NCBI GenBank assembly: GCA_001247695.2
Contig: LGRX02003713.1
Coordinates: 1-64,000 of the forward strand
DNA from: Cymbomonas tetramitiformis
Lineage: Eukaryota > Chlorophyta > Pyramimonadophyceae > Pyramimonadales > Pyramimonadaceae
Length of the DNA: 64,000 nucleotides
Direction of reading: 5' to 3'
In this document: one piece after another, positions 24,898 through 48,485 of the stretch
Position numbering within the stretch: the stretch's first letter is position 1
How the letters are laid out: each line of letters starts with the position of its first letter
Notes under the pieces: generated by a model
Databases searched by the model: none
The model's input: only the letters and a program-made list of their open reading frames with translations
Told to the model about the DNA's origin: nothing
Position numbers and translations under genes: made by a program

Positions 24898-25174
24898 AGT
24901 AGTAAGTGTACGACTACGGTGTCCCTCCGCCCTACACTGACTACCGATAGAGGCGCAAGCGCCTCGATTATTGTGGTAGCATTGTAGAAAATGTGAGATG
25001 GTCGGAACACCGTAGTCGTACACTTACTACTGAAACAAAGGGAGGACGAAGTGAGAAGCGGACTAAACGCAAAAAGGGGGAAATTGGTTACAATTCTACA
25101 TTATCTTTAAGATATATGCATATTATAACCATTTCCCCCCAAAGTTAGAAATTTCTTCTCATCTTGCGTCTAAA
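24898..25174. repeat. Left terminal inverted repeat of the provirus
   Basis: Identical by eye to the reverse complement of 48209-48485. The outer 134 bp (24898-25031) are themselves bounded by 25-bp inverted repeats (AGTAGTAAGTGTACGACTAC and complement) with a GAGGCGC-AA-GCGCCTC hairpin inside, so each provirus end can fold on itself. The inner part carries one copy of the GGTTAYAA palindrome. Confidence 0.93.
25076..25140. repeat. Provirus palindrome copy 1
   Basis: GGGGG, GGTTACAA, AT-rich centre, TTATAACC, CCCCC. It lies in the left terminal repeat, just downstream of the short fiber gene. Confidence 0.85.
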
Positions 25175-25203
25175 TTAATTGTTTAAAAATGTGGAATTGT
25201 CGA

Positions 25204-25857
25204 TTAAGCCTTTTTGAATTTCACCGTGTTGTCAGAACCAGATTCCAAATAGAACTGCCCAACGGCTGCCGCACCTTCTCCTACAGGCATATTTGCGGGA
25301 TTTACAAACAAACCTTCCCCTATATACATATTTTTGGCAATTGAAGCGCTTCCGGCACTTCTTAAAGGATTGTTATTTGCAGTTATATATTTATTAGTTG
25401 GATCGTCGTTATCATTCTCTACTGAAAGTTGTTGACAAAACCAACGACCGTCGACTCGCATCAACATAGGCAACGTTTTACTTATACCTGCCGATGGATT
25501 TGCTATGTTTTGATATGAAAAAATTATAGCGCTGTTATTCGTAACGGTATCTGTGAGGCATTGAATGGCAGGTTTGTTTATATCATCCACGGCTTTTACG
25601 CGCATTTGTCCATTGCAATGAAGCACCCCCGTTGCCGAACTAGTGGGACCAATTTCTATTTTGCTAGAAGTAATGATGTCATACGTACTTTGTAAAACTT
25701 GATTCAAAAATATCGTTTTGCTTGTTGTTGGTTGTAATGTATCTGCTTGTATTGCCCACAAACCATCACCACCACCACCACTCGTTGGAGGTACCCCGCC
25801 GTTAAACGTCGTGCATTGTAAATTTCTGCAAACTAAATCTTTTCCGAAAGAAGCCAT
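25204..25857 (-). CDS. Short fiber-like virion protein
   Basis: A 217-residue protein whose first residues MASFGKDLVCRNLQC match the start of the long fiber next to it (SSFGKNAIFKTVQC). The shared leader suggests a common docking segment to the capsid vertex. After a Gly-rich linker (SGGGGDG) the body is beta-rich, with Asn, Ser and Thr repeats, as in trimeric viral tail or spike proteins. No enzymatic motif is visible. It is the leftmost gene, reading toward the terminal repeat, and belongs to the minus-strand structural block. AT-rich sequence with TATAGTAATA precedes the start. A role in host attachment is inferred. Confidence 0.6.
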   Translation of the reverse strand: MASFGKDLVCRNLQCTTFNGGVPPTSGGGGDGLWAIQADTLQPTTSKTIFLNQVLQSTYDIITSSKIEIGPTSSATGVLHCNGQMRVKAVDDINKPAIQCLTDTVTNNSAIIFSYQNIANPSAGISKTLPMLMRVDGRWFCQQLSVENDNDDPTNKYITANNNPLRSAGSASIAKNMYIGEGLFVNPANMPVGEGAAAVGQFYLESGSDNTVKFKKA

Positions 25858-25944
25858 GTGTTATTACTATATGCATAACATAAATATAAGCAAAAGGTAG
25901 ATTATTTAATTCTTCATACCAACAACGCTAAAGTGCAACGCGCG

Positions 25945-27912
25945 TTATGTGTTATAATTGGGATTGAGCCATACAAGCAAGCCCGAACCAGGTGTCGTTA
26001 TAACCTTTGTCTCCATTGCTGTACCAATAACACCAACGTTGGTTGTTACTTGGGTGGAATCTACCTGTCCGTTTGTAGTGCATTTTAGAAGTTGCCCTTT
26101 TACATAAGACCCATCTAATGCTTTAACGGTTGTAAAACCTTTTGTACATACGAAGCACGAGTTCCCAATGGTACTATTTTGAACACATATCCCTATTGGT
26201 GAGCAATTTTGATTTGCTTGTGTTGCAGTTGCCGAACATATTTTGACCCCGTTCACATTTGTAGAGTTGTCATCAAATTGAAGGATGTCACCCGCGGCAA
26301 TTGTTCCTCCAGTAGTATTTTCAAACGTATAGACTTCACCTGTGTGTGGGACCGCCGATATTGGTAGTGACGCTGCATATGCGCTAGAAATTGTTGTCAA
26401 CGGTATTCCGGCTGTGGTGATTGATGCCGTCGGGGCTGTGTAACTAAAGTTTAAACTATTTGTAAGAATGACGCTTGTAGCGTCTAAATCCCCCGTAAGA
26501 TTAATGTTAGAACCACTATTGCCGACTGCAAGAACTTGTGCAAGGGATCCTACACTACCAGAAGCGACTGTTCCGCTTCGTATTTCTCCACTTAATGCAT
26601 CGTAATACAGTTGCAAAGTTTCGGTTGCTATATCAGGTGAAGCTCGTATTGGCTTAACCGTAAATGAATCGGGACTGCTTTGGTCTAAAGCGGCTCCAGT
26701 TCCATTAATAATTATTCTATTTGAAACGTTGTCACTTTGCCTATTGGTATTAAAACCAGCATAACTACCTAAAAATGTGCAATTATTCCCCGCTGAATAT
26801 CCACCACTTTCTCTTCCGATAGCTACAACGTTATTGACTGAAGCGCCATTAAAGTTACAAGCATCGTCGCCAATCGCAACCGAAAATGACGGTGCTGTGT
26901 TATAACATGCTCCTGAACCTATAGCAATGGTGTCTTCACTTGTGGCAGAGTTTGTAGTCATTGCATTGCGCCCGATAGCGATCGAGCGTTGACCTATGTA
27001 GTCGCAGTTTGTAAACCCTTGAGTGTTTTCTCCTATACTAATTTTGCCAAGCCCTCCTGTACCCGTTTCCACCCGAAAGTTTGTTCCCTTTATGCTATCT
27101 TGCAAAATTGTAAAATCGCCAGAACCGCTAAATGCCACATCTGGAACGGTGCTCGTTGCACCACGGGTGGTTACGTCTTGGAGAGTAGACGTATCGGGTT
27201 GCGAAGGCAAGTTGGTAAGTGAGGAACCATCACCGATAAAACCTGCAGCAGTTATGGTGTCGGTTGTTATAGCACCCCGAGTAGTCACGTCTTGAAGAGT
27301 GGATGTATCGGGTTGTAAAGGCAAATTGGTCAGTGAGGAGCCATCGCCTATAAATGAATTTGCCGTTATATTTGCGGTTGTAGTAGCACCCAATTGACAC
27401 ACGCCATTTAAATCTTGCGCACCGCCACCACCTCCCGGAACATTAACTAATCCTGAACCATCCCCACTTAAAGTGTATCCCGCACCAACCACAAAATTAC
27501 CATTGCAAAGCACGCCCGAGCCATCAAGATTCATCGTAAGTTGACTCATATTAAGCTCCGAGGTGCCATCTTCCCCTATAGACAATCGATCTACATCTCC
27601 CGTTGCTTCTTTTGATGTTATAACAAAATTTTGGTCAGTCTCGTCAAGCTTAAGTTCAAATTTAGTCGTCGAGATTGGATTGTTGAGAACAAAGTCATTG
27701 ATTGCGATGCCTGAATGGATTTTTAATGAACCATCAGTCAGCAATGACATTTGCTCACGTTCGTTTGTAGGATCTTTAGTATCAATGAATTTGATATCAT
27801 TTTGGTATTTAATGTCGCTAGCCATGTGTAATGTTTCTAACGGGTTGCTAACAGAGCCCAATGATTGACATTGGACTGTTTTGAATATTGCATTTTTGCC
27901 AAAACTGGACAT
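25945..27912 (-). CDS. Long fiber protein with YadA-like head repeats
   Basis: A 655-residue protein (start at 27912, chosen because MSSFGK then aligns with the short fiber; an in-frame codon six residues upstream is also possible). After the shared leader it has two near-identical segments containing TTRGAITTDTITAAGFIGDG-type repeats. Then comes a row of AIGxxA motifs (SIAIGRNA, TIAIGSGA, SVAIGDDA, VVAIGRES) typical of YadA-like trimeric adhesin heads. A FTVKPIR...LQLYYDALSGEI block follows, commonly seen in algal-virus fiber proteins, and then a globular C-terminus. This is an extended trimeric spike, probably for binding the host cell. The repeats make the gene prone to length variation. 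Confidence 0.8.
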   Translation of the reverse strand: MSSFGKNAIFKTVQCQSLGSVSNPLETLHMASDIKYQNDIKFIDTKDPTNEREQMSLLTDGSLKIHSGIAINDFVLNNPISTTKFELKLDETDQNFVITSKEATGDVDRLSIGEDGTSELNMSQLTMNLDGSGVLCNGNFVVGAGYTLSGDGSGLVNVPGGGGGAQDLNGVCQLGATTTANITANSFIGDGSSLTNLPLQPDTSTLQDVTTRGAITTDTITAAGFIGDGSSLTNLPSQPDTSTLQDVTTRGATSTVPDVAFSGSGDFTILQDSIKGTNFRVETGTGGLGKISIGENTQGFTNCDYIGQRSIAIGRNAMTTNSATSEDTIAIGSGACYNTAPSFSVAIGDDACNFNGASVNNVVAIGRESGGYSAGNNCTFLGSYAGFNTNRQSDNVSNRIIINGTGAALDQSSPDSFTVKPIRASPDIATETLQLYYDALSGEIRSGTVASGSVGSLAQVLAVGNSGSNINLTGDLDATSVILTNSLNFSYTAPTASITTAGIPLTTISSAYAASLPISAVPHTGEVYTFENTTGGTIAAGDILQFDDNSTNVNGVKICSATATQANQNCSPIGICVQNSTIGNSCFVCTKGFTTVKALDGSYVKGQLLKCTTNGQVDSTQVTTNVGVIGTAMETKVITTPGSGLLVWLNPNYNT

Positions 27913-27935
27913 AAATATGTGTGTATACAATAGAG

Positions 27936-28247
27936 TTAATAAAAAAACGTGCCAGCGATGGGCGGTAACGGCGTGTTTATGGGATGTTCCGGAAAGTATC
28001 CAATAATATTAATGGCATTTACCTTATCATCTCGTCCGAGCAGTGTCGGTTTGTATCCATATAATGGATTTACATTACTTATTTTTGCTGGTGGTTGTGT
28101 GATATCGTTTATCGTCTTACATGGCAGTTGTTGCATAAAAGGGCTACGAGCGCCGCTCATTTGTATCATACACATTGGTTGTTGAATTGTATTGTTACCA
28201 ATTGGTAAGCCTAAAGATGTTGAATATAAACCGGGTTGTTGTGACAT
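27936..28247 (-). CDS. Small conserved-looking virion-block protein, unassigned
   Basis: 103 residues, rich in Pro, Asn and Gln, with no known domain or membrane segment. It lies between the long fiber and the major capsid gene on the same strand. An AATATATAGAATAC motif stands 10-20 bases before its ATG, like other genes of the provirus, so it is likely a real gene. A minor structural role is a guess from position. Confidence 0.6.
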   Translation of the reverse strand: MSQQPGLYSTSLGLPIGNNTIQQPMCMIQMSGARSPFMQQLPCKTINDITQPPAKISNVNPLYGYKPTLLGRDDKVNAINIIGYFPEHPINTPLPPIAGTFFY

Positions 28248-28291
28248 AAAAGTATTCTATATATTATTGCACCTAAAAAATAGTGTGTTGC

Positions 28292-29629
28292 TTATATAAC
28301 GACCTCAATCATTCTACCTTGACCGATTCTTAATATGCTAGTGCATGCACAAACGACAAACACTTCGTTAAGTTTTAGTTCATCTTGTGTTGCATCTATT
28401 CCAACGGAAGTTTGAAAATACATACTTGTATTCAATCCACGACTATCCAATCCTGACATGCTTCTTACTCCCATCTCATTGGGCATATTTAGTCGTACCA
28501 TAGCTGTAAAGAAGTGATTGTACCAATCGAGCAAGCTATTGATTTTACATCCAGGTCGCACTGAATATTGGTCGGCTTTTGAAACACACAACGTGTTGAA
28601 AAATCCTATCGCGTCGTTGCGATAATTTGGGATATAAAGATTATTGATATTAAATTGTCCGCTACCAAGTCGTCCTGCTTTGAAATTAAAATATGACGGA
28701 GTATAACTTGGTCCTATAATATCTGTGTATTCTATCAACCCTTCGTTTTTGTCTCGATAATCTTGTTTACGTTGAACAGCGTATATTTCGTCAATGGATT
28801 GAGCGCTTAACGAAAATCGTGTCGATTTATCCATCGTATTATGGGACTCGGTGAATGTAAAATAGTTTTTAAATGGTATTTGTAACATGCCATCGCTTTT
28901 TAATTTTGATTCAATGGCAGAGTCGTACACGCCCGTAGAAAACGTGATGGTTTCAACGGTAAAAAATATATCTTTTAAAGAAAATGCACCTTTATTTATA
29001 AGTTCGGTTTGTGCTTTTGCGTCTAAACCCTTACCTATTTTCTTTGAATCTTGAATTGCTCCAAGTACCTCTGGTCCGCTCAAATATATTCTCATTTGCA
29101 TTGAAGGCAGTAATGAAGTATCTACATACGTTGGTTCACAACTGCCGATAAACGACAACCAATTTTGTAATATATAAGGATGATAATTTTGGTAATATTT
29201 GTCATCATTAACTTCAATTTCTTGATTTTGCAGCACTCGCTGATATGTGGAAGCTTTTGAAAACGTGGTGTAAATGTTGTCTAAAATTGTGCTTACCGTA
29301 TTATATTGTTGAAAGCCACTTTGCAATTGTATTCCTCCTGCGTAAAGTTCTACTCGCTGAATCAGCTTATCTAGTCCGTTCGGCAATTGAGTACGTAAAA
29401 TATCGTTTGCAGCTGCATCATTGGTAAAAGCCAAATCGGCGTCATTAGCCCGAGCGGTACAATGCATTGCAATGCTCTTCATGTTTACCACTGAATTTAC
29501 GGGCAAATTCAATGTTATTACGCCATTTTGTATTGCTTCAGTCATGTTTGTCGTTTCCAATCGGAAATAATTGGTTTGATAACCGCTCAATTTGTTGAGT
29601 GCGAACGCTAATGAAAACGGCAAGCTCAT
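28292..29629 (-). CDS. Major capsid protein (double jelly-roll candidate)
   Basis: A 445-residue protein starting MSLPFSLAFALNKL, the second in-frame start (the first lies six codons upstream). Length, beta-rich character and location between penton-like and fiber genes fit the double jelly-roll major capsid proteins of Polinton-like viruses. Supporting local features are an early YFRLETTNMTEAIQNGVITL strand, a VELYAGGIQL segment, and a long insertion with aromatic clusters. The shell of the virion would be built from its trimers. There is no short invariant motif in this family, so a structure prediction is the decisive test. A TATATTATACACAATG sequence precedes the start. It is the strongest MCP candidate in the element. 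Confidence 0.75.
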   Translation of the reverse strand: MSLPFSLAFALNKLSGYQTNYFRLETTNMTEAIQNGVITLNLPVNSVVNMKSIAMHCTARANDADLAFTNDAAANDILRTQLPNGLDKLIQRVELYAGGIQLQSGFQQYNTVSTILDNIYTTFSKASTYQRVLQNQEIEVNDDKYYQNYHPYILQNWLSFIGSCEPTYVDTSLLPSMQMRIYLSGPEVLGAIQDSKKIGKGLDAKAQTELINKGAFSLKDIFFTVETITFSTGVYDSAIESKLKSDGMLQIPFKNYFTFTESHNTMDKSTRFSLSAQSIDEIYAVQRKQDYRDKNEGLIEYTDIIGPSYTPSYFNFKAGRLGSGQFNINNLYIPNYRNDAIGFFNTLCVSKADQYSVRPGCKINSLLDWYNHFFTAMVRLNMPNEMGVRSMSGLDSRGLNTSMYFQTSVGIDATQDELKLNEVFVVCACTSILRIGQGRMIEVVI

Positions 29630-29665
29630 TGTGTATAATATATACAATTAAGACAATAAAATATT

Positions 29666-30655
29666 TTACATCGTAGCCAGTTCTTTAACCGCAATTGACA
29701 TACTATAACTTATACTTCCATCTCGGGCTTGAGTTTTGCTTACGAGGGGAATTGGGCGTGCTTTGGAATCTGTAAGCGTAAATTTTAAGTCTGTTAATTG
29801 ACTGCCTTGAATTTCGATTGCAAAATTATCATTTGGGTTAATGAAGTTGATAAAATTAGTTGTTAAATCTGATGGCAGCAAAATTTTGGCAAATATATCA
29901 CTGGCTAACAATGAATTTGTCCTTACATTGATTCTGGATAAGTTGGTGCTTTCGGCATTATGTGTGGGTAAACTGCTTATACGCAAATACAACGCATCAT
30001 TTGTTTGTAAATTTCCGGGAAAGAAGCTTGTAAAAACCTGATTTGGCGTAACTTCATTAAACATATCGGTTAACTCTTGTACGGTGGACAAGCCGGTGAC
30101 ATTTCTTACAACTCGACCCCCTAAAACTTGATCAATGTCATTATACTTACCTTCATCTTGGACACCCACGGATGATGTTAATGCCGCTTGCAACGGACCA
30201 GTTGCGTCAAAATCTTCCTTGATGGAAAACGCCACAAATTTGATATCGGTTACGGCTGTTTTTAAGTCAATCTGAAAATGATTTTGGTAGTCTGCGGGGT
30301 CTCCGTTAAAGGTGACTTCCACCTGCCCTGTATACCCGAAATTTTCGGTCAACGTTTGGGTAATGGCAGTTGCCAAAAATGGAGCAATTTGGGACAACAA
30401 TGTATAATTGCCCGGAGGGACGATAACGCTAAACAACTTGTTGTCCGATAGTCTTGCAATGTAAAACGTGTTGTTGAAGGAATTGATGGTATACCACGAC
30501 TTCGCTGCACTAAACGTGTTCAGAATTAATCGCAATTTGCTTGAAGGATAATATCCAAACAATTGTGTCGGAATGCTGATGTCAATCTTACGACTGTCCC
30601 CGCTTGCATTATTTTCACTATTTAGATATATTGTTCGTGTCGACAAAATGTTCAT
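29666..30655 (-). CDS. Minor capsid/penton candidate
   Basis: 329 residues, beta-rich, starting MNILSTRTIYLNSENN. The N-terminal half contains LRLILNTFSAAKSWYTINSF and a VIVPPGNYTLLSQIAPFLA element. Such 'PPGNY' segments recur in single jelly-roll minor capsid and fiber-anchoring proteins of algal viruses. It lies directly upstream of the major capsid gene on the same strand, the usual place of the penton gene in this lineage. CTATAGATA immediately precedes the ATG. Its first 38 bp overlap the small gene at 30618-30878 in another frame. Assignment as penton is from order and fold-like features only. Confidence 0.55.
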   Translation of the reverse strand: MNILSTRTIYLNSENNASGDSRKIDISIPTQLFGYYPSSKLRLILNTFSAAKSWYTINSFNNTFYIARLSDNKLFSVIVPPGNYTLLSQIAPFLATAITQTLTENFGYTGQVEVTFNGDPADYQNHFQIDLKTAVTDIKFVAFSIKEDFDATGPLQAALTSSVGVQDEGKYNDIDQVLGGRVVRNVTGLSTVQELTDMFNEVTPNQVFTSFFPGNLQTNDALYLRISSLPTHNAESTNLSRINVRTNSLLASDIFAKILLPSDLTTNFINFINPNDNFAIEIQGSQLTDLKFTLTDSKARPIPLVSKTQARDGSISYSMSIAVKELATM

Positions 30656-30878
30656 TATCTATAGTTATATAGTTTACACATTTTATATCATCGATAGTTT
30701 CTCTTGGTTTGGCATCCCCTATTTCAACATTGCCTTTAGCATATTGATCATAAAAGTCGGAGCGCTTTAAATAATCATCGACAAGTAGCTCTATGTGGCA
30801 TTGGGGAATGTCTTTAAAAAAGGTCGATGCCTCGTGAATCAACAAGTCGCGTTTTAACTTGTCTCCCTCGGAATTCAT
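30618..30878 (-). CDS. Small acidic protein, unassigned
   Basis: 86 residues with acidic, helical content and no known motif. Its end overlaps the start of the penton candidate, which suggests co-transcription. A palindrome copy lies about 40 bp upstream. Confidence 0.45.
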   Translation of the reverse strand: MNSEGDKLKRDLLIHEASTFFKDIPQCHIELLVDDYLKRSDFYDQYAKGNVEIGDAKPRETIDDIKCVNYITIDNEHFVDTNNISK

Positions 30879-30916
30879 TTGTTATAATATGTATATTATT
30901 AAATTTTGTATGAAAA

Positions 30917-30980
30917 GGGGGGAAATGGTTATAAACGTGTATACTCTATAAGAAATACCAAATTGTAACCAAAATCCCCC
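30917..30980. repeat. Provirus palindrome copy 2
   Basis: GGGGGG, GGTTATAA, centre with CTCTATAAGAAATA, TTGTAACC, CCCCC. It lies between the end of the lipase gene and the start of the small acidic gene. Confidence 0.85.
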
Positions 30981-30984
30981 TTTT

Positions 30985-32538
30985 TTACTTCACTTTTTTG
31001 TGCCCTATAATAAAGGTAGGTTGTTTGTTCAATACACCGACGTGCTGCACGTTAGAAGTACCCGCCCCGACATAAACCTTATATTTGACGTTTGGAAGGA
31101 AGGAGTGACTTCTATAGGCAGTATTTTCGTAAGTGATACCGGTTGTGGGCGCAAACAACGTTTTATCTTGTTTTAAGCGCCCGGTTGCTTTTCTTAATTT
31201 TTCGGTAATCGGGTCGTATACGGGGACTTTGTCGATACGTTTTTCAATAATAGGGTGCAATCCAAGATGTTTTCGTATGTAATTTTTTTCTGCGAATGAC
31301 TCGGTGACACCCATGGTGGACATGAAATCGGTAAAATTGATCGGAGGTGTTTCAGATAATAACGCACCTTCTACTACACCTTGAGTAGTTCTGAATATAT
31401 GCTCATCATTAGTGCTAGCCGGTGCGTAGTATCCTAGGTACCCACCCAAGGCACCTCCAGTTAAGCCATTTGCAAGCCCATAACGTCCTCTTGCGACACT
31501 GACACGCTCCGTGCTCGGAGAATTGCGCGTATACATTTGTTCGACTGAATGCAACGCAACCAAATCATTTTCAGTGCCAGGTTTAGGTTGCACGTGTACT
31601 ATAGTATACTTGCTTTCAGGGTGAGGGATTACACGACTCGGAAGGCTTACAAGGTCACCCTCCGTAGAGTAAACGGTTTGCTTCGCGGTAGGTTTTCCCG
31701 CGGGTTGCTGCATTGGGTTGATAGCGGGATTAAAGTGATGCCCTTCTACATTATTGGTTTCGGCTATAAAATTACTTTGACCTCCTCCGTTAGAGTGTCC
31801 CGTGACTTTAATGTCATACACATTGCCGTACTTAACTTTAACATCGTTAAACGTTCGTTGAGCTTCATGGTATCTTTGTGAATTTCTTTGCCGTCCGATT
31901 GCCGTGAGTAAATTGACATACCAATCCTCTATGTTCTTTAATCTAGAAGGGGTTTTCATTAAAGTTTCCAATTTTCTGAATTCTGTGTCGCTGCCCCTAT
32001 ATGAGATAACGGCTTCTTTGGTTCCCGGGCTTACCAACACCGTACTATTTCGACCCGATAAAGTGGAATCGATATGGAAGCCCTCGAGCTCTCGCATAAG
32101 CTCTTTCAACTTCGCTTTGTCGTCGTATGCATATGCATATGAGGCGTTTGCCAACAACGCAAATTTCTTTTGTACGGGATTGTCTACGTCTATCACATTG
32201 TTGCCTAATAGTTTACTACTGACTTTAGATGGAAGTTTTACGACATCGGCTTCTATCGCTTGCAACAATTCTGCCGTTTGTTTCTTAACTAGGTCTTGTG
32301 GCTGATTTGTTGGATGAGAATGATTTTTTATGAAGGTGGATTCTATGGCATTAGATTTAGCGTTTGTTACGACTTCGCGGTTGCGATAATTTTGACGCAA
32401 AACTTTCCCCCCACTATTCACGGTGGGTGTGCGTGCATACTCCTCGACGTGTGCATGCTCGTCGGTACCAGAATTATACTTCGGTCTATATTCTTTGCAA
32501 AATTTGGAATCGTTGGCAAAAATTCCACATGTAAACAT
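30985..32538 (-). CDS. Lipase-like alpha/beta hydrolase
   Basis: 517 residues. A central lipase class 3-like core runs from about residue 120 to 310. It has a strand-turn VISYRGSDT (oxyanion-like region, residues 178-185) and the nucleophile elbow GHSNGG with Ser249, followed by YSTEGDLVSLPSRVIPHP, where the acidic residue and histidine of a triad could lie. The C-terminal 200 residues include a Gly-rich hydrophobic stretch (GLTGGALGGYLGYY) that could contact membrane. The N-terminus is basic and unstructured. Lipase genes occur in some Polinton-like viruses and could help the particle breach a membrane during entry. It sits in the minus-strand virion block, consistent with a packaged enzyme. 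The catalytic Asp and His are inferred. Confidence 0.75.
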   Translation of the reverse strand: MFTCGIFANDSKFCKEYRPKYNSGTDEHAHVEEYARTPTVNSGGKVLRQNYRNREVVTNAKSNAIESTFIKNHSHPTNQPQDLVKKQTAELLQAIEADVVKLPSKVSSKLLGNNVIDVDNPVQKKFALLANASYAYAYDDKAKLKELMRELEGFHIDSTLSGRNSTVLVSPGTKEAVISYRGSDTEFRKLETLMKTPSRLKNIEDWYVNLLTAIGRQRNSQRYHEAQRTFNDVKVKYGNVYDIKVTGHSNGGGQSNFIAETNNVEGHHFNPAINPMQQPAGKPTAKQTVYSTEGDLVSLPSRVIPHPESKYTIVHVQPKPGTENDLVALHSVEQMYTRNSPSTERVSVARGRYGLANGLTGGALGGYLGYYAPASTNDEHIFRTTQGVVEGALLSETPPINFTDFMSTMGVTESFAEKNYIRKHLGLHPIIEKRIDKVPVYDPITEKLRKATGRLKQDKTLFAPTTGITYENTAYRSHSFLPNVKYKVYVGAGTSNVQHVGVLNKQPTFIIGHKKVK

Positions 32539-32562: not shown

Positions 32563-33174
32563 TTAACGGGGTACGGCTCGGCTGCGCAAAGCTGTCGTAC
32601 CACTAGTCGAAACACTGCGGGCCATTTCACTAGGGGATAGATTTAACAAATTGGCTTGGTCCGCTAGTGGGAATTGGGATAAATCTGGAAACTGGGTTGG
32701 ACCTTGATAATCTCCATCGCCAACACCGTCTGTATCTGATTTGGCGTCGTCAAAAGCAGGGTTTGAATCGAACGGTGACGCGATATCCTGTATGTAAGAT
32801 GAAGGCGTACTACTCCTTGACGGTGGGGGTGTCGACATTTGCTGGAAAAAGTTGATATCGCCCACACGTGTTTGATTTAATCGACTTAATGTTTGAGCAG
32901 TGTACGCGCTTTGCACCGCTGATACCCTATCAGGTTGACTATCGAATAATATGTCCTCGTTAATTCTTGCGACCAAACTATTCGGTTTGACTGGTGCATT
33001 CATAAGCGTCGCGTAAAACATGACATTATTTTTTGGCGGTGCAGTTATACTATATGATTTGCCAGCCAAATTTGAGTATTCTGAAAATATTTTATTGCTC
33101 GAGGAGGGATTTCTAAACCCCATTTTGTTCAAACAGTGAGTGCGTGTAGCTTCGTCGGTTAAAATACGTCTCAT
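32563..33174 (-). CDS. Proline/serine-rich virion-block protein, unassigned
   Basis: 203 residues. The N-terminal half is mixed helical. The middle has a low-complexity MSTPPPSRSSTPSS stretch and then Asp-rich sequence. No known domain. It is the first gene of the minus-strand block and shares a bidirectional promoter-like region with the methyltransferase gene at 33206. Possibly a minor virion or scaffold protein, by position only. Confidence 0.55.
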   Translation of the reverse strand: MRRILTDEATRTHCLNKMGFRNPSSSNKIFSEYSNLAGKSYSITAPPKNNVMFYATLMNAPVKPNSLVARINEDILFDSQPDRVSAVQSAYTAQTLSRLNQTRVGDINFFQQMSTPPPSRSSTPSSYIQDIASPFDSNPAFDDAKSDTDGVGDGDYQGPTQFPDLSQFPLADQANLLNLSPSEMARSVSTSGTTALRSRAVPR

Positions 33175-34578: not shown

Positions 34579-34642
34579 GGGGGAGAATGGTTATAATTTG
34601 ATATTCTCTATAAGATATACACTTTTATAACCGGTTCCCCCC
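34579..34642. repeat. Provirus palindrome copy 3
   Basis: GGGGG, GGTTATAA, centre TCTCTATAAGATATA, TTATAACC, CCCCCC. It lies immediately upstream of the C5 methyltransferase. Confidence 0.85.
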
Positions 34643-40553: not shown

Positions 40554-40618
40554 GGGGATGTTGGTTATAAATTGGTATCATCTATAAGATATACAACGTT
40601 TTATAACCAATGTCCCCC
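40554..40618. repeat. Provirus palindrome copy 4
   Basis: GGGG, GGTTATAA, centre ATCTATAAGATATA, TTATAACC, CCCCC. It lies after the primase-helicase stop. Confidence 0.85.
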
Positions 40619-40652: not shown

Positions 40653-40715
40653 GGGGGTTTTGGTTACAATTTGATGTTATCTATAAGATATATCATGTTT
40701 ATAACCATTTCCCCC
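40653..40715. repeat. Provirus palindrome copy 5
   Basis: GGGGG, GGTTACAA, centre ATCTATAAGATATA, TTATAACC, CCCCC. It overlaps the 3' end of the packaging ATPase gene, so the last ATPase residues are encoded by the palindrome. It stands 35 bp from copy 4, between convergent genes. Confidence 0.85.
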
Positions 40716-41627
40716 TTTTTTTAATGCCAAATTCTGAGGTGGCACCATAAACTCGTTGAAGTTGCGGCGAAACCCACTTGGGTGCGATTGCTTTTTGTGA
40801 AGGTCAATGAACAAGAAGTCATGAGGCGTTTGCACGGCTTGGTTATACATTGCGTGAAAGGTGTCCAGGGGAACCTCTCCGCTACACTCGTCTCCGATGC
40901 AATCTATTTCTTTTTGGTTTTTATTGCGAAACACCAACATGTGAGTGAGGTTGCCTCGTATAGCCTTCAATAGCCCCCCACTATTGCTGGTGTAGTTTTG
41001 CGTAGCGAAGAGCAATGTGGCACCTAGGGCTCCATCAGACAGTCGTCCCAAGTGTCGATGCTTAATTACCAAGTTACTAAGTTTGCTCGACGCTTTCATG
41101 ATATCGGTGCCTTGCGTATCGTCAAACATGATTGCCATGGCAGGTTTACGCCCATTGTACCTATGCACGGGGGCGGTAAACTCAGGACCAAACTCCATTA
41201 GCAAATCGGCGGGTATCTCATATATTGACATATTGGAATTGTTTAGCATTTTCATCAAATTTTTGTACCGTTTTGACTTTTCCATGTACTCGTCATAATC
41301 CTTTCCTTCCGCGTCCATGATTTCCTCGATTTTGTTCGGCACGTCCACGGTAGGTTCTAGTACGTCCGACTCATCCAACGGGAGGTCTTTGAAATAGTGT
41401 TTGTTGTTATGGTATGTGGGCGACACCAACAATAGTCTGTCTAGTGCGTTGTTGCGTTTCATTAATCGTAGAAGATTACTCAACGCAGTGGTTTTCCCGG
41501 TACCTCGTTTCGCGACTGCTAGAATAACACCATGCAGTTGAATAAAGTGGGGCTCTGTAGCTATTGTGAACGCACCTGATTTAGGGATTTGAATATCATA
41601 ATCGGGCGATAGTTTTAGTGTATTCAT
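40677..41627 (-). CDS. FtsK/HerA-type genome packaging ATPase
   Basis: 316 residues. Walker A is AKRGTGKTT (residues 39-47) and Walker B MAIMFDD (164-170). A LLFATQNY sensor-like segment and a RGNLTHMLVFRNK arginine-containing stretch follow. This is the A32-like packaging ATPase pattern shared by Polintons, virophages and giant viruses. It pumps DNA into the capsid. TTCTATATAGTATAGT precedes the start. Its C-terminal end (GGNGYKHDISYR) is read from palindrome copy 5 and is probably an extension. Confidence 0.9.
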   Translation of the reverse strand: MNTLKLSPDYDIQIPKSGAFTIATEPHFIQLHGVILAVAKRGTGKTTALSNLLRLMKRNNALDRLLLVSPTYHNNKHYFKDLPLDESDVLEPTVDVPNKIEEIMDAEGKDYDEYMEKSKRYKNLMKMLNNSNMSIYEIPADLLMEFGPEFTAPVHRYNGRKPAMAIMFDDTQGTDIMKASSKLSNLVIKHRHLGRLSDGALGATLLFATQNYTSNSGGLLKAIRGNLTHMLVFRNKNQKEIDCIGDECSGEVPLDTFHAMYNQAVQTPHDFLFIDLHKKQSHPSGFRRNFNEFMVPPQNLALKKGGNGYKHDISYR

Positions 41628-41637: not shown

Positions 41638-42084
41638 CTATATAGAAGGAAATAATGAGTTATATGTTTTTGTATACATAGGGGATTGAGGGTCTACTCC
41701 GTGTGGGGATCGCACCTTTGATTGCTTATCTCGCTTTTTAGACTTGTGCTTGACAACGACTTGTGCCTCCGCTTCGCTCATACTGCTTTCGGACTCGCTA
41801 GAAGAATCGTCTTTTTCTATAATAATTTGTTGTTTAGTCTTTTTGAAAGACCGTTTGGACACTTTTGGGATGGGTACCAACTCGTCATTGTTTGATTTTG
41901 TAGCTTTCTCTATAGTTTCTTGGGCTTGTACAAGCTTTTGTTTCTTTTCAAGCTCATTTGCTGTTTGGAGGTCCCTTTTGTCTTGTGCCTTTTTGCGTCT
42001 AGTTTCAAGTGCTTTGGCTCGGCATTGTGCTAACCTATCTAACGTAGCTTGATCTTCTATTTTTTTCCCTTTCGCAAAACCCAT
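41638..42084 (-). CDS. Lysine-rich small protein, unassigned
   Basis: 148 residues from MGFAKGKKIEDQ (the start at 42084 is preferred over an upstream codon, because TTGTCTATAGTAATATATA sits just before it). Highly charged with long helical Lys/Glu stretches, SSSESESSMSEAE acidic patch and basic C-terminal part. A DNA-binding or virion core role is possible but not shown. It lies directly upstream of the ATPase, on the same strand, 10 bp apart. Confidence 0.55.
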   Translation of the reverse strand: MGFAKGKKIEDQATLDRLAQCRAKALETRRKKAQDKRDLQTANELEKKQKLVQAQETIEKATKSNNDELVPIPKVSKRSFKKTKQQIIIEKDDSSSESESSMSEAEAQVVVKHKSKKRDKQSKVRSPHGVDPQSPMYTKTYNSLFPSI

Positions 42085-42486: not shown

Positions 42487-42489
42487 TTT

Positions 42490-42529: not shown

Positions 42530-45500
42530 ATGTCCAAAACCAAGCTTACCGCCAACCAATGGGAACGCTTGAAGAAGAATACCAACTTGGACGAAGACGA
42601 TAGGGTAGATTTAATACGATTGTATCAACGTCGAAATAAGAAAGGCGGAAATGTCAACTTGCTCACCAAAAATGAATTTGATGCAAGAGGCAAGACAACG
42701 AAAGCCGACACCTATGTTACACTAAAGAAACATATCGAAAAGCACTCAACCGATGGGACCGAGTACGTTATACCTTTCGATGTATTTCTGACCAAGCCAT
42801 TAGAGCATTGGATAGGTCAACAACAAAATGATACTAAAGAGGTGATACGTATGGCTGTTGAGTTTGAGGACAAATATGAAACCACGCCAATCACGGAAAA
42901 TGACCGACTAAAATTGTACGAAAAATTGAATCAAATTGCCCAATCTGATGCACTAAAAGAACATGGACCGGCAAAAACCATTAAACTTTTTAAGTACACC
43001 ACAAAAATACCTACAGGGAAAGGGTGCAGTTTAGCTTCGCCAAAATCCATTTCGGAGGTGTTTCGAAAACGTGCGACAATAACCATACGCAATAATGACG
43101 CACTTTGCTTTGATAGGTGCATTGTGATCCTTGACAACATAAACTGGAAAGGTCAATCTCACGTGTATAAAAATCTCATACGTGACCACCATGGCATTTT
43201 AACTCGAAAAGCCCAAGAATTGCGGAATTGTATGGACCTCGCTTTAGCGGAAGGAATTTCCATAACACAAGTTTACCGATATGAAATGAAATTTCGACGA
43301 AACATTCATGTATACGCGTTGACATCAATCGGACCAAAATTGATTTATCCATATTGTGATGAAAATCGTTCTTCTCTATTATACAAAGACGATTGGCATT
43401 TAGTTTATTACAATGGGCACTATGGCGTCATAACTAATATTAATGCCTTTTTGGGACATAACTACAAACGGCATTGCCCGCGGTGTAAATCAAAACGATG
43501 CAAGTTCGCAAATCCTCGACAAAGAAAGCAATTTAAGACGTGGACTAGATGTGACGATTGTGGTTGCACCTTTTATGACCGAGAATGTTACGATTTCCAT
43601 AAATCGTCGTCAGTTTGTAAAAGCTATTCGTATTGTGAACAATGCAAGACTAGGTATCCAAACGATGTTAGCATCGCACACGTGTGCGGGCATAGGGTTT
43701 GCGATAACTGCAAAGAATATTGTGATATGAGTGACCACTTATGTTACATCACTAAAAAAAACCCTAAAGACATACTTTCGATAGAAAAGATTGCATTTTT
43801 TGACTTTGAATCAACCCAAAATACAGGCAAGCACGTAGTAAACTTTTGTGTATGCCAATATTACGATGGTACAGAGATAGTCCATCATACGTTGGAGCAA
43901 TTTGCCACTTGGGCGTTTCAGTCCGCACACAAAGGTATGACAATGATTGCGCACAATGGTTCCGGTTACGACTTCAAATTGATACTCGATTATGTCATAA
44001 CGGAACGTGGCGACGTACCAAAAGTATGTACAAATGGCTCTAAAATCATGAGTCTTGAGTTTGAACATGTGCGGTTCGTCGATAGTTATCTTCATTTTGC
44101 CACATCTTTATCAAATGTGCCGAAAATGTTTGGGCTGCAAGATGACACTGCCAAAGGTTGGTTCCCTCATTTATTTAACACTGTCGAAAATCAGAATTAT
44201 GTAGGAATGTATCCAGAATCCAAATATTACGCACCTGAATGTATGAAGCAAACGCAGTATGCCCAATTTATGCAATGGTGGACTCATAAAGTAGATAATC
44301 AGTGCACGTTTGACTTCAAACACGAGATGCATCGATATTGTTCCAACGATGTCACAATACTACGTCAAGCGTGGTTAAAGTATCGCGAGATACTGATGTC
44401 CTTGCACGACAACTTTGACCCCACGCGCTATTTAACAATTGCAAGTCTTGCACAAGCAATACATCGCTCCGAGTATATGCCCGAAAAATCAATCGCAATT
44501 TTGGATAAACCACTAGCAAAAAAGCAAAGCATTAAATGCAAACAATGGCTTGAATATATACGTTTTCAACATAAAATTCCGCTTTTGGAAGAATACAAGT
44601 TACCCGGGACGTCTTACATTGTGGATGCAATTGATATTCAAGCGAGCATGTGCTACGAGTTTCTAGGCGATTATTGGCATGGGTCATTAGACGTGTTTGC
44701 CCCGTCAAGAAAGAATTTTGATAGAAATAAAACAATGAAGCAATTGCATGACGACACGTTTGCGAGAATCGCGCATATTGAATCTTTAGGGTATAAAGTT
44801 CAATATATATGGGAAAATCGATGGGATATGTTGTGCAAGACAGATATAGATGTACAATTGTTTTTAAAGTCGTATCGGAAAGACATATCTCCAAGAGATG
44901 CATTTTTCGGCGGTCGGTGTGACCCTAAAAAAATGTATTATCGTAAGAAAGACAGCGAGACTATTCGTTATTTAGATTTTACATCACTGTATCCCTATTG
45001 CAATAAATATTGCGAGTATCCTATCGGTCATCCTACAAAAATCAAATGCCCGAAAAATACAGATGTCAGCAAGTATTTTGGAATAGTGTATTGCAGAGTG
45101 ACACCACCAACAGACTTACAAATAGCGGTGTTACCCCAAAGAAATGCTGATGGTAAACTAACATTCCCATTACATGCCATGGAAGGTTGCTGGACAACGC
45201 TCGAGCTGAACAAAGCTGTTGATAAGGGGTACATCATCGATGAAGTGTTCGAAATGTGGCATTGGACAGAAAGGTCCACAAGCATTTTTGAAGGGTATGT
45301 CAATGCATTCTTAAAAATCAAACAAGAAGCTAGTGGCTTTCCCGCTTGGGTTAAAACCGAAGACGACAAAGATTTGTATGTAAAAAAGTACTACGACGCC
45401 GAAGGTATCCATTTAGACAAGTCAAAAATAAGCAAAAACCAGGGTTTACGGTCAGTGGCAAAGATTTTTTTAAATGCCCTGTGGGGCAAATACGTCGAGC

Positions 45501-46222
45501 GGGAAAATAAAGCATTGACCAAATTTATCAAGAATCCATATGAGTTTTATGACATTATAACTAATGAATTTTACAACTGTAAATACGATTTTGTAGGTGC
45601 GGAGGGAAATGAGCTCGTAATGTTAAATTACACTTCCAAAGATATGTACCATAAGTCTAAATATAGTACCAATGAAATGATAGGTGTTTTTACATGCAGT
45701 TACGCACGACTCAAGTTATATTCATTGTTTGAAGATGTGGGTTTTGACAATGTGCTATACGCGGACACCGATTCTTGCATTTATGTTGAGATGGTCGATG
45801 TCAACGATCACGTGTATCGAACTCAACGAGGCGATTATTTAGGACAGCTTACGGATGAGCTTGAAGGAATGAATACCAAATTGTTGGAGTACGTAGCAAC
45901 CGGACCCAAGTCATACAGTTTGCGGTTTGATGACGGGACTGCCCTTACTAAAGTAAAAGGTTTTCCGTTATCGGTTGAGAATGCCGCGAACATCAACCAC
46001 GACACCATGAAACAATTTGTCCTAAATGGCGAAGGACAAATTGGGCTTCAAAATAATGTTATACGCCAACAAAAAAGAGCTTGTACACACAAACTATTAG
46101 GGCTAGAAACACGACCTGAAACGAAGACTTTTAGGTATCAATATGACAAAGGGCATGTGCAAGTCGATAGAGATTATAACATTTTGCCATGGGGCCACAA
46201 TGAAATATATTGTGTTTCATAA
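42530..46222 (+). CDS. Protein-primed family B DNA polymerase
   Basis: 1230 residues. The N-terminal 300 residues are unassigned and could hold the terminal-protein function. Residues about 310-415 form a cysteine-rich zinc-binding region (CPRCKSKRC, CDDCGC, CEQCKTRYP, CDNCKEYC). Exonuclease motifs follow: FFDFESTQ (about 423), HNGSGYDFKLI and YCSNDVTIL. Polymerase motif A DFTSLYP lies at about 815, motif B as KIFLNALWGK, and motif C YADTDS at about 1077, with KVKGF near the end. The gap between exo and motif A contains the extra segments expected for the protein-primed (Polinton/phi29-like) group. It would replicate the linear genome from its ends. The stop lies just before the integrase start. 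Confidence 0.93.
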   Translation: MSKTKLTANQWERLKKNTNLDEDDRVDLIRLYQRRNKKGGNVNLLTKNEFDARGKTTKADTYVTLKKHIEKHSTDGTEYVIPFDVFLTKPLEHWIGQQQNDTKEVIRMAVEFEDKYETTPITENDRLKLYEKLNQIAQSDALKEHGPAKTIKLFKYTTKIPTGKGCSLASPKSISEVFRKRATITIRNNDALCFDRCIVILDNINWKGQSHVYKNLIRDHHGILTRKAQELRNCMDLALAEGISITQVYRYEMKFRRNIHVYALTSIGPKLIYPYCDENRSSLLYKDDWHLVYYNGHYGVITNINAFLGHNYKRHCPRCKSKRCKFANPRQRKQFKTWTRCDDCGCTFYDRECYDFHKSSSVCKSYSYCEQCKTRYPNDVSIAHVCGHRVCDNCKEYCDMSDHLCYITKKNPKDILSIEKIAFFDFESTQNTGKHVVNFCVCQYYDGTEIVHHTLEQFATWAFQSAHKGMTMIAHNGSGYDFKLILDYVITERGDVPKVCTNGSKIMSLEFEHVRFVDSYLHFATSLSNVPKMFGLQDDTAKGWFPHLFNTVENQNYVGMYPESKYYAPECMKQTQYAQFMQWWTHKVDNQCTFDFKHEMHRYCSNDVTILRQAWLKYREILMSLHDNFDPTRYLTIASLAQAIHRSEYMPEKSIAILDKPLAKKQSIKCKQWLEYIRFQHKIPLLEEYKLPGTSYIVDAIDIQASMCYEFLGDYWHGSLDVFAPSRKNFDRNKTMKQLHDDTFARIAHIESLGYKVQYIWENRWDMLCKTDIDVQLFLKSYRKDISPRDAFFGGRCDPKKMYYRKKDSETIRYLDFTSLYPYCNKYCEYPIGHPTKIKCPKNTDVSKYFGIVYCRVTPPTDLQIAVLPQRNADGKLTFPLHAMEGCWTTLELNKAVDKGYIIDEVFEMWHWTERSTSIFEGYVNAFLKIKQEASGFPAWVKTEDDKDLYVKKYYDAEGIHLDKSKISKNQGLRSVAKIFLNALWGKYVERENKALTKFIKNPYEFYDIITNEFYNCKYDFVGAEGNELVMLNYTSKDMYHKSKYSTNEMIGVFTCSYARLKLYSLFEDVGFDNVLYADTDSCIYVEMVDVNDHVYRTQRGDYLGQLTDELEGMNTKLLEYVATGPKSYSLRFDDGTALTKVKGFPLSVENAANINHDTMKQFVLNGEGQIGLQNNVIRQQKRACTHKLLGLETRPETKTFRYQYDKGHVQVDRDYNILPWGHNEIYCVS

Positions 46223-46238
46223 AGTACATTTATACATA

Positions 46239-47555
46239 ATGACCGCTAAATCAAAAAGCATATCTTTGGAACGTATACAAGAATTGTATCTACAACCAGA
46301 TTTTGGATTATCCGGACTTGAGTCTTTTTACAAAAAGTTGCGTAACAAAGGGTACGGTGTCACCAAATCGCAAGTAAAAGTTGCTATAGATGCCACCGAG
46401 TCTTCCCAAACGTTTAGTCAACAAAAGAAAAGTAATCGCAAAAAAATGTTTCCTATTTATGGTCCGGTTGATAAGATTAATATGCAAATGGACCTTGCGT
46501 TCGTGCCTAGATTAAAGTCACAAAATAAAGGATATAGTGTTATTCTTACGGGAATCAACATTAACTCGAGGAAAGCTTATGCCATTGCACTAAAATCTAA
46601 AACCGTTAAAGACAAACTTGATAAGAAATCAGAAGCTGCCGAAGGAGTTGTTCCCGCTATAAGGAAAATGATATTGGATTCCAATTTACGCAATGGAAAT
46701 TTGACGACAGATTCTGGAAGTGAATTTGTTAACAAGCAAGTTAAGCAATTGTTACAAGAGTACAACATAACACATTATGTCGCGGAAGTAGAAGACCATT
46801 CACGTATGGGCACAATCGAACGCTTTAATCGCACATTAAAGCTAAAGTTATCAAGAGTTAAAAAATCAGATTGGGTAAATCAGATTGAGACGATTGTAAA
46901 GAATTACAACGACACAAGTAATACTGGTAATCCGGATGCGTCAAGTCCTGATGACATGAACACTATCAAGATTATTAGAAATGTATTGTTGAAACGAAAT
47001 AAAACGTTTGAACTATACAAAACATTAGGCATTAAAATTGGCGATACGGTTCGATTACGTGTGCGCGCAAAAACATTTGACAAAGAATCTCAACGTTGGT
47101 CAACAAAGGTCTATAAAGTTAAGATGAGACAAGGCAATTCGTTTATTGTAGAAGATGTTGAAGACAACGAACGTTTAGCAAGGGCGTACAAGCCTAGAGA
47201 ACTTTTAGAAGTCAAAGGACCTATAGCTAAATCCTCCAAAAATACTCGAGGTACTCAAGGTATCTCTAAAGAGGCGCAGAATGAAACGGTTGCTCGAAAG
47301 TTAAAAAAAGAGGGCATCGACAAAATTGTGGAAGTAAACCGTTCGCGAAATTACGATGGACATAAAGTACGAGTATTCATAGATGATAAGAAATCTCCCA
47401 ACTATCAAAAAACATTAACAGGGCATCTAAAACTGAATAAAGGCAAACGATCTAGGCGCAAATATGAGTTGATATTTGACGCCAAAAATGAAGAAAACGA
47501 GTTTGTAGATTTGCCCGACCCAACAATTACCGTCTTAGACGCGAAGGCATTTTAA
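46239..47555 (+). CDS. Retroviral-type DDE integrase
   Basis: 438 residues. The core has D85 (QMDLAF), D158 (TTDSGSEF) and E194 (GTIERFNRT), a D,D35E spacing exact for rve-fold integrases. The N-terminal region lacks an obvious HHCC cluster. The C-terminal 240 residues contain a basic SH3/chromo-like part (GDTVRLRVRAKTF) and a separate Lys/Arg-rich domain to the end. The enzyme would recognise the AGTAGTAAG termini and make the 6-bp staggered cut seen as GGCCTG. The frame is open upstream into the polymerase gene. The ATG at 46239 is chosen because it lies 17 bp after the polymerase stop. Its stop overlaps the stop of the opposite gene in a shared TTAA. Confidence 0.93.
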   Translation: MTAKSKSISLERIQELYLQPDFGLSGLESFYKKLRNKGYGVTKSQVKVAIDATESSQTFSQQKKSNRKKMFPIYGPVDKINMQMDLAFVPRLKSQNKGYSVILTGININSRKAYAIALKSKTVKDKLDKKSEAAEGVVPAIRKMILDSNLRNGNLTTDSGSEFVNKQVKQLLQEYNITHYVAEVEDHSRMGTIERFNRTLKLKLSRVKKSDWVNQIETIVKNYNDTSNTGNPDASSPDDMNTIKIIRNVLLKRNKTFELYKTLGIKIGDTVRLRVRAKTFDKESQRWSTKVYKVKMRQGNSFIVEDVEDNERLARAYKPRELLEVKGPIAKSSKNTRGTQGISKEAQNETVARKLKKEGIDKIVEVNRSRNYDGHKVRVFIDDKKSPNYQKTLTGHLKLNKGKRSRRKYELIFDAKNEENEFVDLPDPTITVLDAKAF

Positions 47556-48160
47556 CAATCATCTACAAACTCCAATACTGTACTGTTATCTTCATGAGGC
47601 TTTAATAACATTTGTGAAACCTTGTAACTAATGCCAAATTGTCCATTTATAATCCAAATTCCCGCAACTTGCACGATGGCTTTGATATTTGCATACTTTG
47701 TTTTATGTATTTGAAGAAGTGTTTGTACTCCGGTATCGCCTTCGAACACTTGGACATCGTCAATAGGTACTTGACATTTGAATAATGGCGAATAATTTTC
47801 GTTTGCTGGTTGTTTGATTGAGGAATTGAAAAATTCTTTAATGACTTCTTGGTTGTAGTTTTTTCTTTTTAACCACTTGAACGCGTTTGTCGTGGCAGTC
47901 TCGATTACCTTTTGATCGATCGCCTTTAACATTTCCGAAAACGATTTGTTTTCATCATTTAGCGATAGATTAAGGTAATATTTGTCACAGTCTTTAAAAG
48001 AACTTACACCAAACGGTGCTGTTAGATAAGGTGTTTGGATATAGAATGGTTTGTTGTCATATCTTATGTTCACATATGATCCTCCTCGAGATAGTGTTTT
48101 TATGTCTTCGCAAGAGATTTTAGCAATGTTAAAAGTTTGGGAAGTTGTTGGATAAATCAT
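47552..48160 (-). CDS. Conserved viral protein (DUF5871-like), possible ssDNA-binding
   Basis: 202 residues. It contains PFYIQTPYLTAPFGVSSF followed by KYYLNLSLNDENKSF and MLKAIDQKVIE. This order (IQTP...APFGVS...YLNLS...FxxxLxxID) is that of a family shared by phycodnaviruses and Polinton-like viruses, often listed as DUF5871. A single-stranded DNA-binding role has been suspected from its beta-rich fold and place among replication genes, but I cannot confirm it. It is the rightmost gene, transcribed away from the right terminal repeat and convergent with the integrase, the two stop codons sharing four bases. Confidence 0.65.
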   Translation of the reverse strand: MIYPTTSQTFNIAKISCEDIKTLSRGGSYVNIRYDNKPFYIQTPYLTAPFGVSSFKDCDKYYLNLSLNDENKSFSEMLKAIDQKVIETATTNAFKWLKRKNYNQEVIKEFFNSSIKQPANENYSPLFKCQVPIDDVQVFEGDTGVQTLLQIHKTKYANIKAIVQVAGIWIINGQFGISYKVSQMLLKPHEDNSTVLEFVDDC

Positions 48161-48208
48161 AAAAGTGCGCTGCCTATAATATTAGTTAAACATATTTTTG
48201 AAAATAAT

Positions 48209-48485
48209 TTTAGACGCAAGATGAGAAGAAATTTCTAACTTTGGGGGGAAATGGTTATAATATGCATATATCTTAAAGATAATGTAGAATTGTAACCAAT
48301 TTCCCCCTTTTTGCGTTTAGTCCGCTTCTCACTTCGTCCTCCCTTTGTTTCAGTAGTAAGTGTACGACTACGGTGTTCCGACCATCTCACATTTTCTACA
48401 ATGCTACCACAATAATCGAGGCGCTTGCGCCTCTATCGGTAGTCAGTGTAGGGCGGAGGGACACCGTAGTCGTACACTTACTACT
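48209..48485. repeat. Right terminal inverted repeat of the provirus
   Basis: Reverse complement of the left repeat with the same inner foldback (48352-48485). Followed by the duplication GGCCTG. Confidence 0.93.
48243..48307. repeat. Provirus palindrome copy 6
   Basis: Mirror copy of palindrome 1 in the right terminal repeat, upstream of the DUF5871-like gene. Confidence 0.85.

What the first reader, a model, noticed from the sequence alone, without database searches (positions are those of the whole stretch)
24898..48485. Intact, apparently recent Polinton-like provirus with exact ends
Both 277-bp terminal repeats look identical, the 6-bp duplication GGCCTG is perfect, and every core frame (integrase, polymerase, ATPase, capsid, fibers, lipase, methyltransferases) is open. 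Together this indicates a young, possibly inducible virus of the host. Polinton-like viruses in algae are known as a group; this gene combination looks unusual to me.
Basis: partly seen in the sequence, partly recalled or inferred. Interest (0 to 1): 0.9.

Follow-up and report, generated by a model that had tools for sequence, protein, structure and literature searches.

The report
Intact Polinton-like provirus with palindromic ends
A complete virus of about 23,600 bases sits in a eukaryote's chromosome with matching ends and open genes; the group is known, but its hairpin-forming ends and six repeated palindromes, beside a helicase like the herpesvirus origin-binding protein, make its way of copying DNA worth testing.

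Summary
The element (24898-48485) has terminal repeats identical over 277 of 277 bases, a perfect 6-bp duplication, 16 long open frames and lower G+C than its flanks. The 28292-29629 product folds as a double jelly-roll capsid protein. A second copy, 99.9% identical but with another right flank and two damaged frames, lies elsewhere in the same assembly, so the family spread recently. It is a Polinton-like virus, a known kind. Host and inducibility are unknown.

The outer 134 bp of each terminal repeat is an imperfect palindrome; in 1 of 33 ends it is inverted, as in flip/flop virus ends. Six 63-bp palindromes share inverted half-sites that co-vary in relatives. A primase-helicase has a helicase part closest to the herpesvirus origin-binding protein. 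I propose that the palindromes are origin-like sites for it (about 0.4); transcript-end hairpins are an equal rival. Genome-wide pattern, empty-site and capsid-copy searches did not complete.

The parts
24892..24897 (.). left target-site duplication GGCCTG
24898..25174 (+). left terminal inverted repeat, 277 bp
   Evidence: 277 of 277 identical to the right repeat
24898..25031 (+). terminal imperfect palindrome of 134 bp (28-nt arms 24898-24925 and 25004-25031)
   Evidence: I8; single-strand DNA fold of the 277 bp z = -9.8; folds in 7 of 7 ends tried
25077..25139 (+). 63-bp palindrome, copy in left repeat
25204..25857 (-). frame of 217 aa, fiber-like by position only
   Evidence: no Pfam match
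25945..27912 (-). frame of 655 aa with repeats, likely fiber
   Evidence: sub-threshold Chlorovi_GP_rpt, 18.4 bits against cut-off 27; 114-bp tandem repeat
27936..28247 (-). frame of 103 aa, unknown
28292..29629 (-). major capsid protein, double jelly-roll
29666..30655 (-). putative minor capsid protein (inferred from position beside the MCP)
   Evidence: no family match
30918..30980 (+). 63-bp palindrome, 5 bp past the lipase stop
30985..32538 (-). class 3 lipase-like protein
   Evidence: Lipase_3 E 2.6e-4, 21.4 bits, just under cut-off 22
32563..33174 (-). frame of 203 aa, unknown
33206..33928 (+). N6/N4 DNA methyltransferase
   Evidence: PF01555 E 7.9e-24
33929..34561 (-). C5 cytosine DNA methyltransferase
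   Evidence: PF00145 E 7e-6
34580..34642 (+). 63-bp palindrome, 19 bp upstream of the C5 methyltransferase start
35378..36484 (-). frame of 368 aa, unknown
37009..37226 (.). two oppositely oriented arrays of an 11-bp repeat (37009-37046, 37145-37226) in the 1-kb divergent gap before the primase-helicase
37488..40472 (+). primase-helicase: N-terminal archaeo-eukaryotic primase motifs, UL9-like superfamily 2 helicase
40554..40616 (+). 63-bp palindrome between convergent genes
40653..40715 (+). 63-bp palindrome overlapping the ATPase stop
40677..41627 (-). packaging ATPase (A32 type is a recalled label)
   Evidence: Walker A and acidic motif; AAA_19 below cut-off; 91 homologues
41638..42084 (-). 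frame of 148 aa, lysine-rich, unknown
42530..46222 (+). [quoted passage not shown]
   Evidence: PF03175 E 7.3e-49; motifs
46239..47555 (+). rve integrase, D-D-35-E (start taken at the ATG after the pPolB stop; the longest frame starts at 46143)
   Evidence: PF00665 E 1.5e-6, 28.9 bits against cut-off 32.6; IS481-like E 3.1e-14, below cut-off
47552..48160 (-). DUF5871 protein
   Evidence: PF19196 E 5.4e-8
48209..48485 (-). right terminal inverted repeat, 277 bp
48244..48306 (+). 63-bp palindrome, copy in right repeat
48352..48485 (-). terminal imperfect palindrome of 134 bp
   Evidence: (I7)
48486..48491 (.). right target-site duplication GGCCTG

Best explanation
It is a recently integrated, structurally complete Polinton-like virus. 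Shown: the exact ends, the duplication, the open core frames, the double jelly-roll capsid, and a near-identical sibling elsewhere in the assembly. Inferred from known families: the rve integrase inserted a linear DNA and made the 6-bp duplication; pPolB copies the linear genome with its own N-terminal protein as primer; the ATPase fills a capsid of MCP and a minor capsid protein. Inferred, about 0.4: the six 63-bp palindromes, one in each terminal repeat and four inside, are origin-like sites with inverted boxes around an AT-rich core, bound by the element's UL9-like primase-helicase, which opens the DNA there and primes. Inferred, about 0.25: the 134-bp terminal palindromes fold back during replication, and their transfer can invert them. 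The confidence below is for the identity and recent integration together with the family-based life cycle, not for the last two steps.
Against: No binding, replication or expression data. The fold search tested little outside residues 364-776; no UL9-like DNA-binding domain was shown. Of the covariation measures, 3 pairs changed on both sides is reached by 66 of 500 shuffles and further pair types by 368 of 500; the two diverged rows are related, and I drew the structure from these same sequences. Four of six palindromes lie within 65 bp of a stop codon, with T-runs beside the stem, as transcript-end hairpins would. Only 1 of 33 ends is inverted, in a deletion derivative. Of three contigs with both ends and both flanks, only the window has a matching 6-bp duplication; C16578 and C182 do not. 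The C882 copy has a frame break in pPolB and a stop near the ATPase C-terminus, and its left flank is one base, so a mis-joined haplotype is not excluded. Its coding differences are 14 non-synonymous to 6 synonymous, no sign of selection since the split.
Confidence: 0.75

Rival explanations
1. The 63-bp palindromes are transcript-end signals: RNA hairpins at which the virus's, or a helper giant virus's, machinery ends and tails messages, as in mimiviruses. (Raised from 0.35 to 0.4 on rechecking where runs of same-strand genes end.)
For: Strong RNA hairpins (z -3.3 to -7.3 in 5 of 5 different copies). Four of six lie within 65 bp of a stop codon; stops of 4 of 16 frames have a copy within 85 bp, and these close four of the nine runs of same-strand genes that I count. 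T-runs follow the stem on at least one strand in each copy, once after one G (by eye). Mimivirus transcripts end at palindromic hairpins (PMC4402537, passages).
Against: [quoted passage not shown] Two of six lie upstream of starts (34580, 48244), and five of the nine gene runs have no copy near their end.
Confidence: 0.4
2. The palindromes are promoters or enhancer-like sites bound by a viral or host transcription factor. (Lowered from 0.15 to 0.1 on the same recheck.)
For: A TATA-like core between inverted boxes (my reading); 34580 is 19 bp and 48244 is 84 bp upstream of a start.
Against: The nearest copy to the capsid-gene run lies 263 bp upstream of the minor capsid frame and none lies between the capsid frames; 40554 and 40653 lie between convergent gene ends.
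Confidence: 0.1
3. The element is a decaying transposon-like repeat rather than a virus able to make particles; the window copy merely happens to be open. (Odds for this separate question.)
For: Partial and diverged copies; C882 with two damaged frames; 14 to 6 non-synonymous to synonymous changes.
Against: The window copy keeps 16 open frames, catalytic motifs in the four proteins checked and capsid genes; capsid and ATPase relatives are found among predicted proteins of public genomes and metagenomes.
Confidence: 0.25
4. The single inverted end arose by recombination between the 28-nt arms after integration, or by misassembly, and says nothing about replication. (Odds for this separate question.)
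For: 1 of 33 ends only; the copy is a deletion derivative.
Against: The inverted 134 bp is 100% identical to the window's palindrome, and the alignment to the computed inverted form runs through the junction without a gap.
Confidence: 0.6

Closest known systems
Polinton-like viruses of protists, such as Cymbomonas and cryptophyte PLVs (PMC10675990, PMC12220804; sections and passages)
   Same: integrated linear genomes of 14-40 kb with double jelly-roll MCP, packaging ATPase, diverse replicases, rve or other integrase, terminal repeats, 5-6 bp duplications and lower G+C; lipase in Cymbomonas PLV2; methyltransferases in over half of the PLVs and virophages of PMC7805220 (passages)
   Different: pPolB and a UL9-like primase-helicase occur together here. 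PMC12220804 section 11 reports primase-SF2 helicases in 20 R. lacustris PLVs and one MELD virus. Palindromic ends and repeated palindromes were not mentioned in what I read; 'hairpin' occurs 0 times in PMC12220804
Mavirus-like low-GC EMALE virophages (PMC8547959, passages)
   Same: rve integrase, pPolB and a primase/helicase in one integrated element
   Different: the helicase here is UL9-like superfamily 2 (the mavirus type, superfamily 3, is recalled); no maturation protease found; the capsid shares the fold with mavirus but ranks closer to giant-virus capsids
AEP-SF2 (UL9-like) proteins of mimivirus, ASFV, Ostreid herpesvirus and some yaraviruses (PMC11253617, passages)
   Same: N-terminal AEP motifs fused to a UL9-like helicase
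   Different: here in a small virus that also has its own protein-primed polymerase
HSV-1 OriS and its origin-binding protein (PMC12543377, passages)
   Same: inverted boxes around an AT-rich spacer; matching helicase fold
   Different: six sites here, two of them in terminal repeats; no shared box sequence claimed; binding untested
Parvovirus and poxvirus hairpin ends (recalled; PMC8956199 seen only in a search listing)
   Same: terminal imperfect palindrome found in both orientations
   Different: here in an element with a protein-primed polymerase, and 32 of 33 ends have one orientation

Membership tests
Polinton-like viruses (class Polintoviricetes) | double jelly-roll MCP | tested here: met
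Polinton-like viruses (class Polintoviricetes) | packaging ATPase | tested here: met
   motifs, 91 homologues; the A32 model itself was not among the Pfam hits
Polinton-like viruses (class Polintoviricetes) | minor capsid (penton) protein | tested here: inconclusive
   candidate 29666-30655 by position; no family hit; no model made
Polinton-like viruses (class Polintoviricetes) | terminal inverted repeats | tested here: met
Polinton/Maverick in the narrow sense | pPolB and rve integrase | tested here: met
   the rve score is just below Pfam's cut-off, the catalytic triad is present
Polinton/Maverick in the narrow sense | capsid maturation protease | tested here: inconclusive
   no hit at E <= 0.01 among 16 frames in Pfam; remote homologues could be missed
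Maveriviricetes (virophages) | virophage-type MCP | tested here: inconclusive
Maveriviricetes (virophages) | dependence on a giant virus | not testable with these tools
   needs infection data
UL9-like AEP-SF2 replication proteins | SF2 helicase closest to the origin-binding protein | tested here: met
UL9-like AEP-SF2 replication proteins | AEP catalytic motifs | tested here: met
   D85, D87, S126, H128, D164 invariant in 19 sequences (the window and 18 of 26 homologues); motif assignment recalled; AEP fold not searched separately
UL9-like AEP-SF2 replication proteins | sequence-specific origin binding | not testable with these tools
   needs binding assays
Viruses with hairpin (flip/flop) ends | terminal palindrome in both orientations | tested here: inconclusive
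   1 inverted of 33 ends
Mimivirus-type hairpin transcript ends | palindrome just after stop codons | tested here: inconclusive
   4 of 6 copies within 65 bp of a stop

The most novel reading that the evidence does not exclude
A Polinton-like virus with two ways of starting DNA synthesis: protein priming at palindromic ends that can fold back and invert, and internal oriS-like origins opened and primed by its own UL9-like primase-helicase. It would stand between protein-primed and primase-based replication in the evolution of these viruses.
Probability: 0.25. Interest if true: 0.75.

Novelty: new variant of a known kind. Interest (0 to 1): 0.5.

Why it matters
How Polinton-like viruses moved between protein-primed and primase-helicase replication is an open question in the evolution of eukaryotic DNA viruses. 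An element that holds both modules, with a conserved family of palindromes as candidate sites for one of them and palindromic ends for the other, makes that question testable with one purified protein and short synthetic DNA. The sibling copies also help to date the invasion.

Tried and rejected
Relatives in IMG/VR: scans with the MCP, an MCP alignment (10 of 16 homologues), pPolB and an ATPase alignment (22 of 91 homologues) gave none. The primase-helicase alignment (18 of 26 homologues) gave two loci of one contig, a head-to-head palindromic assembly with ATPase-like and lipase-like frames (by eye). GTDB contigs with the ATPase alignment and phage records with the ATPase: none. Rfam at gathering scores: none. 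PDB by sequence for the MCP: none.

I first thought that pPolB with a primase-helicase was unprecedented; PMC8547959 (passages) shows that low-GC EMALEs have both, so I dropped that claim. The only organism named among relatives is Prorocentrum minimum, for an ATPase 61% identical. I considered that the isolated terminal palindrome at C8269 was a separate mobile unit; an inserted stretch flanked by ACTACT explains it better (by eye). I hoped to test whether each diverged element shares one half-site at all its palindromes; the diverged copies that I fetched (C18246, C3048) hold only end regions of the element, so this stayed untested. Literature searches for hairpin or inverting ends and for origin-binding proteins in this group were (listings, then passages of three papers); nothing that I saw reported them, which does not prove absence.
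Full report
What is there. The element spans 24898-48485 (23,588 bp). Its terminal repeats are identical at 277 of 277 positions and diverge from position 278; GGCCTG lies on both sides. G+C is 0.388 against 0.496 in the rest of the window, and the 16 main frames cover 84% of it. The one run of N in the window, 51557-52020, lies outside.

Genes. Pfam finds a protein-primed type B polymerase (E 7.3e-49), an rve integrase (E 1.5e-6, 28.9 bits, below its cut-off of 32.6) and DUF5871, an N6/N4 methyltransferase, a C5 methyltransferase and a borderline lipase. NCBIfam, given 8 of the 16 proteins, supports the integrase (IS481-like, E 3.1e-14) and matches the 994-aa frame to CyRepA1 (E 4e-24), both below the curated cut-offs. 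Polymerase, exonuclease, integrase D-D-35-E, helicase and ATPase motifs are in place (motif names recalled; the vOTU Cys/His idea is from PMC11071308, section 5 part 2). No protease was found. The minor capsid protein is assigned by position alone.

Age and copies. The window is contig C2986 of an assembly of 851.7 Mb. A search with the left terminal repeat gave 70 matches, many of them the palindrome matching itself; 28 cover at least 285 of 291 bases at 94-100% on 24 contigs. Only 40 of 63 candidates were scored, so this is a lower bound. C882:2-23588 is a second full-length copy with 21 substitutions and 3 gaps; its right flank differs from the window's. Of 20 coding substitutions, 14 are non-synonymous (one a stop near the ATPase C-terminus) and 6 synonymous, and a one-base length difference breaks pPolB there. 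Two ends (on C16578 and C233) share the 12 outer bases printed and may be the same insertion. Of three contigs with both ends and both flanks, only the window shows matching duplications; C16578 and C182 do not. I read this as a recent expansion with some decay, or with assembly joins.

Terminal palindromes. Positions 1-134 of the repeat form an imperfect palindrome with 28-nt arms. The 277 bases fold as single-stranded DNA at -65.5 kcal/mol against a shuffled mean of -26.2 (z -9.8). Seven ends that I picked for their differences all still fold (RNA parameters), including C18246 and C3048, whose repeats are 84% and 77% alike to the window's. I compared the 33 ends that hold the palindrome with the window's form and with a computed inverted form. 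All but one fit the window's orientation; C10669 fits the inverted form at 98.9% over 277 bases. That copy is a deletion derivative. Inversion of a terminal palindrome is what fold-back replication produces in parvoviruses and poxviruses (recalled), but one case can also come from recombination.

The 63-bp palindromes. Six copies lie in the element, two in the repeats and four inside. The half-site pattern, drawn from these copies, occurs 6 times in the element, 0 times in the rest of the window, and 0.0 times on average in 300 mononucleotide shuffles of the element. In an alignment of the five different window copies and two diverged terminal copies, 96.6% of cells pair against 45.4-56.3% with the partner slid; 5 cells in 3 pairs of the half-site change on both sides. 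Shuffling reaches 5 such cells in 0 of 500 trials, but 3 such pairs in 66 of 500 and the number of pair types in 368 of 500. The two diverged rows share most of these changes, so they are few independent events. A 92.6% identical stretch on C16578 keeps both palindromes of the 40554/40653 junction.

How it most likely works. Integration by the rve integrase and protein-primed copying of the linear genome follow from the families. That the palindromes serve the primase-helicase as origins is my inference (about 0.4). The equal rival is transcript-end hairpins (0.4, raised on rechecking): 4 of 6 copies lie within 65 bp of a stop codon and close four of nine same-strand gene runs, with T-runs beside the stem. 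Against it, mimivirus hairpins are described as not conserved in sequence (PMC4402537, passages), while these share half-sites and core. The two roles do not exclude each other.

What is known. Integrated Polinton-like viruses with these core genes are widespread (PMC10120064, abstract and Results parts 1 and 2 of 3; PMC7805220, passages; PMC10675990, passages, section 0 part 1, section 6 part 1; PMC12220804, passages, sections 10 and 11; PMC12721341, abstract and Results part 1; PMC11071308, abstract, section 5 part 2, section 7). PMC12220804 reports primase-SF2 helicases in 20 R. lacustris PLVs and one MELD virus; 26 homologues of this one lie in the protein database. Low-GC EMALEs carry pPolB and a primase/helicase together (PMC8547959, passages). 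So the element is a new variant of a known kind; its palindromes and ends are the part worth following.

Noticed in passing
window 37009-37226: Two arrays of an 11-bp repeat in opposite orientation, in the 1-kb divergent gap upstream of the primase-helicase; they look like iterons or regulatory sites.
   Followed up: partly
window 19809-20435 (-): A host-side frame 36% identical over 144 alignment columns to the element's C5 methyltransferase, without a Pfam match; perhaps a relic of another element.
   Followed up: partly
window 21507-22685, 56134-56832, 62037-62660 (+): Repeated frames, 53-69% alike in parts, with an NPPF- or NPRF-like motif in two of them (by eye), no Pfam match; an unnamed repeat family of the host.
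   Followed up: partly
window 11591-12505 (+): Copia-type reverse transcriptase (RVT_2, E 1.2e-21); a retrotransposon lies near the provirus.
   Followed up: no
L039 (G000:C10669:137503-137873): Terminal 134-bp palindrome inverted relative to the rest of the repeat, in a copy with an internal deletion.
   Followed up: partly
L041 (G000:C8269:2783-3441): Terminal palindrome parted from the rest of the repeat by about 190 bp flanked by ACTACT, as if another element had inserted there.
   Followed up: partly
L001/L002 (IMGVR_UViG_3300010885_082318): IMG/VR contig with a perfect head-to-head palindrome of 3,259-nt arms, probably an assembly or amplification artefact; it carries a relative of the primase-helicase beside ATPase-like and lipase-like frames.
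   Followed up: partly
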